From the NCBI GenBank assembly GCA_021107945.1, contig JAIORV010000066.1, forward strand, positions 1 to 64,000: a DNA stretch of 64,000 nucleotides, in the 5' to 3' direction. Origin of the DNA: Vulcanimicrobiota bacterium. Lineage in GTDB: Bacteria > Vulcanimicrobiota > JAJTBE01. Shown piece after piece: positions 5,819 to 59,963 of this stretch (positions are counted from its first letter, which is position 1; each line of letters opens with the position of its first letter). Made by a program: the position numbers and the translations under genes. Below the pieces are notes generated by a model. It made no database searches and was not told the DNA's origin. It was given only the letters and a program-made list of their open reading frames with translations.

Positions 5819-5866
5819 TTAACATGTTCTTAACAAATGTTAACAAATTGTTAAGAATATTTACAA
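5819..5866 (+). promoter_or_regulatory. Array of five phased TTAACA-type boxes
   Basis: Hexamers start at 5819 (TTAACA), 5830 (TTAACA), 5840 (TTAACA), 5851 (TTAAGA) and 5861 (TTACAA), spaced 11, 10, 11 and 10 bp, so all face one side of the helix. The outer arms TTCTTAACAA (5827-5836) and TTGTTAAGAA (5848-5857) also form an exact inverted repeat. The array lies 30-77 bp before the likely -35 box. Direct TTAACA repeats at 11 bp match the known pattern of B. subtilis PhoP sites, and OmpR/PhoB-family regulators bind such arrays; the regulator here is inferred. The same array occurs before the other Met/Gly-rich gene (59916-59963). Confidence 0.65.
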
Positions 5867-5895
5867 ACATGTAACCATCAAAACAAAACATGTAA

Positions 5896-5924
5896 TTTAC
5901 TATTCTCCGACTATGTGGTAGAAT
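5896..5924 (+). promoter_or_regulatory. Likely sigma-70-type promoter of the Met/Gly-rich gene
   Basis: TTTACT at 5896-5901 and TAGAAT at 5919-5924 are separated by 17 bp. Transcription would begin about 30 bases before the ATG, just after the box array. The -35 box is weak, as is common for promoters that need an activator. Confidence 0.5.
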
Positions 5925-5960: not shown

Positions 5961-6713
5961 ATGATAGGTATGTTAGGAATGAACGGCGGAATGAGAGGCA
6001 TGTTTGGTGCCAGCATGGGTCTTTCCGCTGGCTTACAGCTTCCCGGATTATCTTTGGGTCTGAACTTGGGTGGCAGTATGGGAATGGATTCCATAGGATT
6101 ATCACCCGATGCAATGTGCGGCGGAGGCTCAAACTTTTCCCATCCCCTGTTGAACGGAGGAATGGGCGGACACCAGAATTTAGGCTCATGCGGAGGAATG
6201 GGATCAGTTCCCGGTATGCACCAGGGTATGGGTAGAGGCCAAGGACAGAACAAACAAATGATGATGCAGATGATGCAAATGATGATGCAGATGATGCAGA
6301 TGATGCAGGGTCAGATGGGTCAGAGGGGTCAGCAATGCGGAAGACGACCTCAAGGTATGCACGGTATGCACGGCAATAGTGGAATCGGAATGAACGGAAT
6401 GAACGGAATGAACGGGATGAGCGGTGCGTTCGCCGGAGTAGGTCCCAATGGCGCATTTGCAGGAGCATTTTCCGGGATGCCGGGTCCCCAGTTTGCAGGA
6501 GCAGGAAATGCAAGTCGTCGCGGTGGAATGGGACGTATGCCCAATAACATGATGAGAATGATGAATAAAATGATGAAAATGCTCATGGGCGGCCAAAATA
6601 GACCACATCATGGCGGACATGGATCACAAGGCAGGGAAAGCGGTGGATTATTTGGTACCTTAGGAGTAGGAATGCTAACCGGTGGATTGTCACTGGGTAT
6701 GAATTTCCTTTGA
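5961..6713 (+). CDS. Met/Gly-rich low-complexity protein, 250 aa
   Basis: No family recognised. About 45 of 250 residues are Met, and Gly, Asn and Gln dominate the rest. Order: residues 1-60 alternate Gly, Met and Leu; about 95-120 is a run of QMM and QMMM units; about 130-152 repeats HGM and NGM; 160-180 is Ala/Gly/Phe-rich; about 190-215 has MM pairs separated by Arg, Asn and Lys; a His patch NRPHHGGH follows. Only three Cys. No signal peptide. A strong AGGAGG lies 9 bases before the ATG, and the gene has its own promoter, box array and hairpin terminator, so it is a real, separately controlled unit. Metal (Cu/Ag) binding, self-assembly or condensate formation are guesses. It resembles the C-terminal half of the gene at 58723-59766 in composition and regulation. 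Confidence 0.8.
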   Translation: MIGMLGMNGGMRGMFGASMGLSAGLQLPGLSLGLNLGGSMGMDSIGLSPDAMCGGGSNFSHPLLNGGMGGHQNLGSCGGMGSVPGMHQGMGRGQGQNKQMMMQMMQMMMQMMQMMQGQMGQRGQQCGRRPQGMHGMHGNSGIGMNGMNGMNGMSGAFAGVGPNGAFAGAFSGMPGPQFAGAGNASRRGGMGRMPNNMMRMMNKMMKMLMGGQNRPHHGGHGSQGRESGGLFGTLGVGMLTGGLSLGMNFL

Positions 6714-19125: not shown

Positions 19126-19290
19126 CCCGGAAGATTTGGTTGCAGGAGATCATTCACTGTGAAATTCATAAGAAATAATTCACATAATTTTAACATCTTT
19201 CTGTTGTATTCAGGGTTATATTAGGGTAAAATAAAAATGGAAAGCTGCGGGAATGGCATACTTATATTAATAACAAGGGGTTGAGGGGAT

Positions 19291-20388
19291 ATGATCGACA
19301 GGACGCCCGTGTCGGGGATAAAAATAACAACTGGAAATATTCAAGCTCCTGGTAAAATAGAGAGAAAAAAAGGTTCTGAAGAATCAACTGAAGCTATCAT
19401 TGACAGAGCAGATCTTACGGCACAGGATCTCCGCAAAGCTTCTATTGAGTATTTTCCCATTCATGTCAAAAGAAGAAGAGAAGCACGGGATAAAGCAAAG
19501 GCGGAAGGACTTGAATCTCAAAAATCGATCGATTCACAAAAGAAAGAGTCAAGCTCTCTTCCCACCAAACCTGAAGACAGAGCTCCGGATTACATTGCCG
19601 ATGTTGAAGATAAAACCCCGTCAATATCGGAGGTCATCAATGATAATGTAAAAATAGATGCCGGTTTATCGAAAAAATCTGAGGGTTACGATATAACTCC
19701 TTTCGAGAAAAAACTATCAGCGGATTTAGGTCCACTGGTCAGAGTACAGAACGACTGGGATATTGACGGTTTACAAGGCAGGATACCCGGCGTTTCAGAG
19801 ATGAAAGAGATATTTGGCAACGTCGCCTCCGATGAATCCATACCATTCGAATATCTCCCCGACGGCTGTTATGCAAGGGCACATATAGCTTCGAAGTACT
19901 TCCTCGACAAAGGTATAAATTGCGCCAAGCTTTATGTGATGTTGTCAGATACAAATATGGACGATCCTTTCTACCCGTTCCCACCATTCAGACTTGAGGC
20001 GAAGAACAAATTTACCGAAGGCAGATGGTGGTATCATGTCGCTCCTGTTACATTTGCAAAAGATGAAGAGACAGGGAAGGTTGAGGGATACGTGATTGAT
20101 CCCGCCGTTAATCCGGAGAAACCCCTGAAGGCATCCGACTGGGTGAGAGGATTCTGGGATGGAACATTCCCGATACAATTTGACACAACGCAGGCTGACA
20201 TATCCAATCCGCCGGTAGAAGACTTTATGAATTACCAGCCAAAGGAGTTCTCGCAGGAGAAATTTGACAAGTTCACCCCGATGGCAAAAAAGATGAATGC
20301 CAGTTATAAAAGGGTGCTCGATAGAATCAAGAAAGAATATTATGAGGATCATCCGGAGAATATAGAACGAAAGACGGAAGCCGGATAA
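19291..20388 (+). CDS. Protein-glutaminase-like (papain-fold) protein, 365 aa
   Basis: Residues about 1-120 are polar, Lys/Glu/Ser-rich and probably disordered. The C-terminal two thirds resemble bacterial protein glutaminases, which deamidate glutamine side chains with a Cys-His-Asp triad. Seen: FEYLPDGCYARAHI near 190-203 (Cys and the usual CYARAH context), WWYHVAPV near 247-254 (His), and GYVIDPAVNP near 268-277 (Asp). No signal peptide, although characterised protein glutaminases are secreted; here the enzyme may act inside the cell. GAGGGG precedes the ATG. It follows the YcaO gene by 330 bp in the same direction; joint action on a peptide is speculation. The fold assignment is by motif. 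Confidence 0.75.
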   Translation: MIDRTPVSGIKITTGNIQAPGKIERKKGSEESTEAIIDRADLTAQDLRKASIEYFPIHVKRRREARDKAKAEGLESQKSIDSQKKESSSLPTKPEDRAPDYIADVEDKTPSISEVINDNVKIDAGLSKKSEGYDITPFEKKLSADLGPLVRVQNDWDIDGLQGRIPGVSEMKEIFGNVASDESIPFEYLPDGCYARAHIASKYFLDKGINCAKLYVMLSDTNMDDPFYPFPPFRLEAKNKFTEGRWWYHVAPVTFAKDEETGKVEGYVIDPAVNPEKPLKASDWVRGFWDGTFPIQFDTTQADISNPPVEDFMNYQPKEFSQEKFDKFTPMAKKMNASYKRVLDRIKKEYYEDHPENIERKTEAG

Positions 20389-58722: not shown

Positions 58723-59766
58723 TTAGATACGGAATTGGTTTCCACCCATAGCATTCATTCCGCCCATCGGATTCATTCCACCCATGGCGTTCATTCCACC
58801 CATCTGGTTTCCACCCATCTGGTTTCCACCCATCTGGTTCATTCCTGCGCCTGCCATCTGTAATGTGGATTGTACCATTTGCTCGGTTTGTGGTTTGAGC
58901 TTGGCTTTTTGCTGTTTGGCCATCATATAATCCTGCTGGAGCTTTCCAACGGGGCCGCCACCCATCATGCCGCCACCCATCTGGTTCATTCCGCCCATGG
59001 CACCCATTCCGCCCATCTGGTTCATTCCGCCCATCATGCCGCCCATCTGGTTCATTCCGCCCATCATGCCACCCATGGCGCCCATTCCGCCCATCATTCC
59101 ACCCATCGGATTCATTGCATTTCCCTGCATGGCATTCATTCCAGTTACTCCTGCACCGCCGCCACCCATTTTCATTGCGTTATGGACGGCCATACAATCC
59201 TGCGTAAGTATTTGATCCCAGTTGTTGTTTTGTTGTGGCATTTGTGCCTGCTGTGCCGGTTGTGCCGGTGCGGCTTCCTTGGGTCCCTCTTCTTTTTTCT
59301 CTTCGCCGGCACCTCCACAGCATCCGCCGCTTTCTTTGGCTCCTTCTGACGCCGCCGCTTCCTCGGCCTTCTTGGCCTCAAGCGCATCAAGCTTATCCTT
59401 GAGCTCCTCAATCTCACCTTTCAGATCGTCAATGGGATCTTTCTTTTCTTCTTCTTTGCCCTTTTCCGTTTCTTTGCCCTTTTCCGTTTCTTTGCCTTTT
59501 TCCGTTTCTTTGCCCTTTTCCGTTTCCTTGCCCTTCTCCGTTTCTTTGCCCTTTTCCGTTTCCTTGCCTTTTTTAGCTTCTTTAGCTTCTTTCGAAATAT
59601 TCACCTTGTCCTTGGTGTCGGTTTTTGCATCTTTGGTCTTCGCCGTCTTGGTAGTAGCCTTAGAAGTCTTCGGCTTCTTTGCGGAAGAACTCTTCCTTGA
59701 AGCGGAAGACCTCTTTGCACTGCTTGATTTCTTCGAACCGCTTACTTTTCCAACTTTTTTTGCCAT
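58723..59766 (-). CDS. Met/Gly-rich protein with basic and charged N-terminal half
   Basis: No family recognised. ATG 59766 is preferred over GTG 59778 because GGAG overlaps the GTG but lies 11 bases before the ATG. Order: residues 1-50 Lys/Ser/Ala/Thr-rich, like histone H1 tails; 60-105 six or seven KGKETE units (18-bp repeat, about 59455-59580); 110-140 an acidic coiled coil (DDLKGEIEELKDKLDALEA); GGCCGGAGEE with a Cys pair; a Pro/Gln linker; QDCMAVHNAMKMGGGG; then to the end GGMMGGMNQMGG-type repeats broken by one helical block (KLQQDYMMAKQQKAKLKPQ). No signal peptide. The C-terminal half matches the composition of the 5961-6713 protein, and both have phased TTAACA arrays upstream. May bind nucleic acid through the N-terminus; function unknown. 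Confidence 0.8.
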   Translation of the reverse strand: MAKKVGKVSGSKKSSSAKRSSASRKSSSAKKPKTSKATTKTAKTKDAKTDTKDKVNISKEAKEAKKGKETEKGKETEKGKETEKGKETEKGKETEKGKETEKGKEEEKKDPIDDLKGEIEELKDKLDALEAKKAEEAAASEGAKESGGCCGGAGEEKKEEGPKEAAPAQPAQQAQMPQQNNNWDQILTQDCMAVHNAMKMGGGGAGVTGMNAMQGNAMNPMGGMMGGMGAMGGMMGGMNQMGGMMGGMNQMGGMGAMGGMNQMGGGMMGGGPVGKLQQDYMMAKQQKAKLKPQTEQMVQSTLQMAGAGMNQMGGNQMGGNQMGGMNAMGGMNPMGGMNAMGGNQFRI

Positions 59767-59876: not shown

Positions 59877-59903
59877 ATTATATCATGGCTTCTTTCATAT
59901 CAA
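59877..59903 (-). promoter_or_regulatory. Likely promoter of the second Met/Gly-rich gene
   Basis: Minus strand: TATAAT (plus 59877-59882) with TTGATA (plus 59898-59903) 15 bp upstream, or TGTTGA at 17 bp. Perfect -10 and a usable -35, immediately downstream of the box array. Confidence 0.6.
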
Positions 59904-59915
59904 CAATAGTAGAAA

Positions 59916-59963
59916 TGTAAACAGTTGTAAAAGAATGTTAACTAAATGTTAATTAATTGTTAA
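59916..59963 (-). promoter_or_regulatory. Array of five phased TTAACA-type boxes
   Basis: Minus-strand hexamers: TTAACA at 59958-59963, 59947-59952 (ATTAAC context) and 59936-59941, then TTACAA at 59925-59930 and TTTACA at 59916-59921. The conserved G/C step repeats at 59959, 59948, 59937, 59927 and 59917, that is every 10-11 bp. Same orientation and same place relative to the promoter as the array at 5819-5866, though the genes are 53 kb apart and in opposite directions. Probable operator of an OmpR/PhoB-type regulator. Confidence 0.65.

What the first reader, a model, noticed from the sequence alone, without database searches (positions are those of the whole stretch)
59877..59963. The same operator layout recurs 53 kb away before the second Met/Gly-rich gene
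Seen: on the minus strand, five TTAACA/TTACAA/TTTACA hexamers every 10-11 bp, then TTGATA and TATAAT. Orientation and distance relative to the promoter match the first array, although the genes are unlinked. Two low-complexity proteins of one composition under one shared switch suggest a regulon and a common structure or compartment.
Basis: seen in the sequence. Interest (0 to 1): 0.7.

Follow-up and report, generated by a model that had tools for sequence, protein, structure and literature searches.

The report
Switch array of a second secretion machine
The repeated TTAACA boxes are a real regulatory switch, but one that occurs at dozens of sites in this genome and its phylum: it sits in front of a second, flagellin-less flagellum-like secretion machine and many probable cargo genes, of which the Met/Gly-rich genes are only a small part.

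Summary
On the minus strand, five TTAACA-type boxes (59963-59916; steps 11, 11, 10, 10) precede an extended -10 (TGATATAAT, hexamer 59882-59877) and a Met/Gly-rich gene (ATG 59766). Such arrays are far beyond chance: 7 hits in the window against 0.1 expected, and genome-wide 40 against 1 in the reversed control.
A PWM scan found about 50 array clusters. They precede both operons of a second, complete flagellar-type export apparatus without flagellin, and dozens of genes whose products start with a disordered, mostly signal-peptide-free leader (often D-x-V-x-I/L-S). Behind the leader come clostripain proteases, 5'-nucleotidases, glycosidases, a deamidase or Gly-rich domains. Met/Gly-rich proteins are a minority, and two lack an array.
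The array lies before the same rod/hook-like gene of this apparatus in seven other genomes of the phylum (31-62% GC), so the link is ancient. The last box sits about 20-22 or 31-33 bp from the -10, as expected for an OmpR/PhoB-family activator bound head to tail. A strongly conserved PhoP/PhoB-like response regulator is the best candidate.
Not shown: binding, expression, secretion. Best reading: a type III secretion regulon, operator of known architecture, secretome apparently undescribed.

The parts
59916..59963 (-). Array of five TTAACA/TTTACA boxes (operator), steps 11, 11, 10, 10 bp
   Evidence: PWM score 34.3, among the highest in the genome
59877..59882 (-). -10 hexamer TATAAT with upstream TG (extended -10); 33 bp after the last box
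   Evidence: no good -35 at 16-18 bp
58723..59766 (-). Gene under the array: 347 aa, K/S/A-rich N-terminus, 'DKVNISKEAK' motif, (KGKETE)n repeats, coiled-coil stretch, Met/Gly-rich C-terminal half; no Pfam match; putative exported substrate
   Evidence: paralogue L065:695-1645 also under an array
5819..5876 (+). First array, six boxes (5819, 5830, 5840, 5851, 5860, 5871)
   Evidence: PWM 33.8
5896..5924 (+). Promoter TTTACT-N17-TAGAAT; -10 at 5919-5924
5961..6713 (+). Met/Gly-rich 250-aa protein with 'DSIGLSPDA' near the N-terminus; paralogue L044 also under an array
19168..19195 (+). Third, weaker array in the window (PWM 15.2)
19291..20388 (+). 365-aa protein with disordered N-terminus and a Gln_deamidase_2 domain (PF18626, E 4e-21); putative substrate of the same regulon

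Best explanation
The array is an operator for an activator of the OmpR/PhoB response-regulator family. Monomers would bind head to tail, one per 10-11 bp TTAACA box, on one face of the DNA, and contact RNA polymerase at an extended -10 promoter with a weak -35. The operator is shared by a large regulon whose core is a second flagellar-type type III secretion apparatus without flagellin and whose other members are mainly its exported proteins: enzymes and low-complexity proteins with disordered, Sec-independent N-termini. The Met/Gly-rich protein at 58.7-59.8 kb is most likely one such exported or surface protein. Shown: arrays, genome-wide enrichment, the genes they precede, phasing to the -10, conservation before the secretion cluster across the phylum. 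Inferred: the regulator's family and identity, activation rather than repression, and secretion.
For: (1) Arrays far above chance in window and genome. (2) Unit asymmetric (TTAACA), repeated at 11 bp, as direct repeats of monomers; 23 of 33 arrays lie on the sense strand of the gene (p=0.035). (3) Of 37 array genes with a good -10, 18 have it 20-22 or 31-33 bp after the last box; about 3 expected if even over 75 bp. (4) Arrays head both operons of a full second flagellar cluster on contig C83 (flgC fliE fliF fliG fliH fliI fliJ SLT fliK; flgE/F/G-like fliM fliN fliO fliP fliQ fliR flhB flhA), while the motility cluster with flagellin (C107) and the flgM locus have none in front of their flagellar genes. 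(5) A PWM trained only on this genome finds the array before the same flgE/F/G-like gene in G001, G004, G007, G010, G012, G014 and G017 (top 0.1-1.4% of gene upstreams), in loci of 31-62% GC. (6) That apparatus has its own FlhA clade, split from motility FlhA with 100/100 support. (7) Array-linked proteins are enriched in a D-x-V-x-I/L-S leader (18/51 vs 22/379, p=2e-8), disorder-type N-termini (p=4e-13) and low N-terminal hydrophobicity (p=4e-5). (8) A PhoP/PhoB-like regulator (C89) has 68-85% identity orthologues in 15 of 16 array-bearing genomes and none above 57% in the 14 genomes that lack both.
Against: No binding, expression or secretion data. Regulator uncertain: a second one (C68) lies in an operon headed by an array and its two best orthologues also adjoin regulon-type genes; the C89 regulator also occurs in 8 genomes where the pattern was not found, and its profile follows phylogeny. 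Some array-linked genes encode Sec-type exported proteins (L004, L051), so not all products need use the T3SS. The FlgM resemblance of the leader is by eye; no array-linked protein matches Pfam FlgM. In G002 the flgE/F/G-like gene has no array. Control contigs were picked among those without a 3-mismatch hit, so control rates are for array-poor DNA.
Confidence: 0.68

Rival explanations
1. A classical Pho regulon: PhoP-type boxes that switch on phosphate-scavenging genes.
For: Box sequence and 11-bp direct repeats resemble PHO boxes (PMC4415409, for the 11-nt architecture; the TT(A/C/T)ACA consensus of Bacillus PhoP is from memory). Three array-linked genes are 5'-nucleotidases. The C89 regulator is PhoP/PhoB-like.
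Against: No PstS (PF12849: 0 matches). Arrays precede a flagellar-type T3SS, proteases and glycosidases; the nucleotidases lack signal peptides.
Confidence: 0.1
2. One reading: a small regulon for Met/Gly-rich low-complexity proteins that form one structure or compartment inside the cell.
For: Met/Gly-rich genes are strongly over-represented under arrays (5/51 vs 0/379; 2/952 in the enlarged control).
Against: Most array genes are not Met/Gly-rich; two Met/Gly-rich genes have no array; arrays head a T3SS cluster.
Confidence: 0.08
3. The arrays bind a repressor or silencer of T3SS and substrate genes rather than an activator.
For: Some arrays overlap the -35 region; xenogeneic silencers also favour AT-rich DNA (general knowledge).
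Against: Sequence-specific boxes with fixed period and phase to the -10, weak or missing -35 elements and extended -10s suit activation; the same boxes persist in a 62% GC locus.
Confidence: 0.1
4. The arrays are an AT-rich promoter or UP-element feature without a dedicated regulator.
For: Boxes are AT-rich and lie upstream of -10 elements.
Against: Information content at C5 of the box, the 11-bp period, and gene-class specificity including conservation in high-GC relatives.
Confidence: 0.04

Closest known systems
PHO boxes of PhoB/PhoP (OmpR/PhoB-family response regulators)
   Same: Tandem direct repeats with an 11-nt unit upstream of the promoter, bound head to tail (PMC4415409); box sequence close to Bacillus PhoP boxes (memory)
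   Different: No PstS in the genome; the regulon is a flagellar-type T3SS and its putative substrates; regulator unproven
CtrA sites of Caulobacter (TTAA-N7-TTAA; from memory)
   Same: OmpR-family regulator, 11-bp step, controls flagellar-type genes
   Different: Different phylum; arrays of up to six boxes; here the motility flagellum is not covered, only the second, flagellin-less system
Flagellar T3SS and its substrates including FlgM (PMC3595227: FlgM as a secretion moiety)
   Same: Full export gate, ATPase, MS/C-ring, rod and FliK genes; disordered N-terminal leaders on putative substrates
   Different: No flagellin, FliD or FliS in the cluster; dozens of enzyme-type putative cargo genes scattered over the genome; leaders do not match Pfam FlgM

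Membership tests
OmpR/PhoB-family response-regulator operator | Asymmetric half-sites in direct repeat at 10-11 bp | tested here: met
OmpR/PhoB-family response-regulator operator | Position upstream of, and phased to, the -10 | tested here: met
   Gaps cluster at 20-22 and 31-33 bp
OmpR/PhoB-family response-regulator operator | A cognate winged-helix response regulator in the genome | tested here: inconclusive
   Candidates C89 and C68; co-occurrence and neighbourhood only
OmpR/PhoB-family response-regulator operator | Binding of the regulator to the boxes | not testable with these tools
   Needs DNase footprint or EMSA
Pho regulon | High-affinity phosphate uptake (pstS) in the genome under control of the boxes | tested here: not met
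   PF12849 absent from a 98.6% complete genome
Pho regulon | Induction by phosphate limitation | not testable with these tools
   No expression data
Flagellar-type T3SS (contig C83) | FlhA, FlhB, FliPQR, FliI, FliF, FliE, FliM/FliN, rod protein, FliK | tested here: met
   Pfam for FlhA, FliI, FliF, FliE, FliM, FliN, FlgC/FlgE-type and FliK; FlhB and FliPQR by sequence and gene order
Motility flagellum (contig C83) | Flagellin and cap in the cluster | tested here: not met
   fliC, fliD, fliS seen in the C107 cluster, not on C83
FlgM family (for the leaders) | Match to PF04316 | tested here: not met
   Only one locus, the presumed true flgM at C53, matches in the genome; ten array-linked and window proteins give no FlgM hit at E<=5
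T3SS substrates | Disordered, non-Sec N-terminal leader | tested here: met
   As a group statistic, not for each protein
T3SS substrates | Export that depends on the apparatus | not testable with these tools
   Needs secretome of an flhA deletion

The most novel reading that the evidence does not exclude
A phylum-wide, non-motility flagellar-type secretion machine with a large genome-scattered secretome (proteases, nucleotidases, glycosidases, deamidases and Met/Gly-rich low-complexity surface or filament proteins), run as one regulon by a single conserved response regulator acting at TTAACA arrays.
Probability: 0.5. Interest if true: 0.85.

Novelty: new variant of a known kind. Interest (0 to 1): 0.66.

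Why it matters
A readable DNA tag that marks the parts and probable cargo of a secretion machine allows its secretome to be listed from sequence alone in a phylum with almost no cultures, and raises the testable question of what a flagellum-like apparatus without flagellin is for. It also gives the Met/Gly-rich low-complexity proteins, which match no family, a first functional context.

Tried and rejected
Pho regulon as the simplest reading: no PstS in the genome. RNA element at the promoter: no Rfam match. Naming the organism by a genome-contig search with the neighbouring thymidylate kinase gave only remote phyla. Regulator from gene neighbourhood: works for the C68 type in three genomes but not for other array-bearing genomes, so co-occurrence was used. 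FlgM family membership of the leaders: no Pfam support. Reading the arrays as palindromes: flanking G/T are less conserved than the matching C/A, so asymmetric units are favoured. The contigs used as control had no 3-mismatch hit, because contigs with hits had already been set apart; they are an array-poor control, not a random sample. In that control, low PWM thresholds (8-14) do not separate real from reversed sequence, so only scores of about 17 or more were trusted.

Full report
OBSERVATION. On the minus strand at 59963-59916 there are five boxes, TTAACA TTAACA TTAACA TTTACA TTTACA, with steps 11, 11, 10, 10. The -10 hexamer TATAAT is at 59882-59877 and is preceded by TG. The first array has six boxes from 5819 to 5876 and a promoter TTTACT-N17-TAGAAT. 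The last TTTACA box lies 33 bp from the -10 in one case and 53 bp in the other, so the two layouts share orientation and roughly helical face, not distance. A third, weaker array at 19168-19195 precedes ORF 19291-20388. In dinucleotide shuffles 0.10 hits are expected in the window; 7 are seen.

GENOME-WIDE. The window belongs to a 5.56-Mb, 98.6% complete genome. Three boxes with up to 2 mismatches give 40 hits against 1 for the reversed pattern; with up to 3 mismatches, 90 against 25. A position weight matrix of the 10-bp unit finds 52 clusters scoring 17 or more in the DNA read, which was fetched largely because of pattern hits. Units are asymmetric (T.82 T.92 A.91 A.97 C.85 A.94, with upstream G only .45), so the array is a set of direct repeats. 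Array end to start codon is often about 80-115 bp.

WHAT THE ARRAYS PRECEDE. Array-linked genes include: Met/Gly-rich genes (both window genes, L065/L011, L044, L066, and L049 with a weaker array); four clostripain-family proteases; three 5'-nucleotidases; GH43/32, GH130, trehalase/GH63-like and alpha-amylase-type enzymes; an adenosine deaminase; an M14 carboxypeptidase; an NlpC/P60 protein; a Gln_deamidase_2 protein in the window; and Gly-rich hydrophobic proteins. Most begin with a disordered leader without signal peptide, often with D-x-V-x-I/L-S. In an alignment of 39 of them, the initial M and D-x-V are the only leader residues that reach a majority. Against ORFs of array-poor contigs the motif is enriched (18/51 vs 22/379, p=2e-8), disorder-type residues in the first 80 aa are higher (p=4e-13) and N-terminal hydrophobicity lower (p=4e-5). 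These regular expressions were chosen after seeing the proteins, so the p-values describe rather than test. In 1.32 Mb of array-poor contigs the few genes with the highest residual array scores are mostly of the same kind, e.g. a divergent pair at L225 scoring 28.5, L221 clostripain-like and L157. That DNA was not used to train the matrix.

SECOND FLAGELLAR-TYPE SYSTEM. Contig C83 carries flgC fliE fliF fliG fliH fliI fliJ, a lytic transglycosylase and fliK, then a flgE/F/G-like gene, fliM, fliN, fliO-R, flhB and flhA. There is an array at the head of the first operon (19975) and one before the flgE/F/G-like gene (10545). Assignments of fliG, fliH, fliJ, fliO, fliPQR and flhB rest on gene order and sequence, not on Pfam runs. 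Flagellin, fliD and fliS lie in another cluster, C107, with its own flhA and a fliA-like sigma gene (names by eye); the only array there is before an unrelated gene. The flgM locus has none. The C83-type FlhA has relatives in 17 other genomes of the phylum and is separated from motility FlhA with 100/100 support.

CONSERVATION. With the matrix trained on this genome only, the array is found directly upstream of the same flgE/F/G-like gene in G001, G004, G007, G010, G012, G014 and G017. Their scores, 16.2-29.6, lie in the top 0.1-1.4% of 704 other gene upstreams from the same loci. G012 is 62% GC in that locus, so AT-richness does not explain it. G002, G030 and G036 do not show it there. A Met/Gly-rich gene under a 34.1 array also exists in G010 (L203).

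HOW IT WORKS. Of 37 array genes with a good -10, 18 have gaps of 20-22 or 31-33 bp from the last box to the hexamer. The Rayleigh test at 11 bp gives p about 2e-3 for all and 1e-3 for exact TATAAT, but periods near 12-13 fit slightly better, so the two clusters, not an exact period, are the finding. Many promoters read TGATATAAT with no clear -35. This suits an activator of the OmpR/PhoB family bound head to tail, as described for PHO boxes (PMC4415409). Two regulators are candidates. C89 (L126:4368-5063) is PhoP/PhoB-like, with 68-85% identity orthologues (counting itself) in 23 of 38 genomes including 15 of 16 array-bearing ones; 14 genomes lack both (Fisher p=5e-4, not corrected for phylogeny). 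C68 (L118) lies in an operon that starts with an array and a Met/Gly-rich gene, and its two best orthologues (55-56%) also sit beside regulon-type genes. I favour C89 as the general regulator and C68 as a possible local one; neither is proven.

ORGANISM. No name is available. One member of the phylum (G008) is a single 3,508,363-bp contig, 69% GC in the locus read, which matches Vulcanimicrobium alpinus (3.50 Mbp, 68.4% GC, no flagellin; PMC9758169). The phylum is therefore probably Vulcanimicrobiota/Eremiobacterota; this is inference.

NOVELTY AND LIMITS. The operator architecture is known; the regulon, its tie to a flagellin-less flagellar-type T3SS and its putative secretome were not found in the papers searched, which is a limited search. 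Secretion, binding and co-expression are untested. Two Met/Gly-rich genes without arrays and several array-linked Sec-type proteins show that neither composition nor the array alone defines the exported set.

Noticed in passing
window 19168-20388 (+): Third array-linked gene of the window: a Gln_deamidase_2 (PF18626) protein with a disordered leader and no signal peptide.
   Followed up: partly
L108, L109, L110, L111 (G000 C24, C165, C44, C76): FlhA cytosolic-domain-like proteins without the membrane part, four in this genome and many in relatives (G016 has 19 FHIPEP matches in all); their role is unclear.
   Followed up: no
L004:1594-2535 and L008:1596-2537: Two near-identical Sec-type exported 313-aa proteins, each under a strong array; other array-linked Sec-type exported proteins of unclear relation in G002 (L086) and G017 (L081).
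   Followed up: partly
L067:1515-2311 and L169/L170: Conserved pair: a small 'GLTPEEMxxxFNRMYLDVWE' protein next to a short helical Gln/Met-rich protein (78-87 aa), near flhA in relatives; candidate chaperone and needle/filament subunit.
   Followed up: partly
L225:11888-14435: Divergent pair of K/E-rich proteins with CHAP-like and glucosaminidase-like ends (domains judged by eye) sharing one double array.
   Followed up: partly
L209:5084-6136 and L236:8206-9063: Two Met/Gly-rich proteins without an array; the first ends in an NlpC/P60-like domain similar to that of an array-linked gene (L052:2876-3487).
   Followed up: partly
L175, L182 (G036, G030): High-GC family with the C83-type apparatus but no array by the matrix; GTTACA and TTAACA lie 22 bp apart upstream of the flgE/F/G-like gene, perhaps a degenerate array.
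   Followed up: partly
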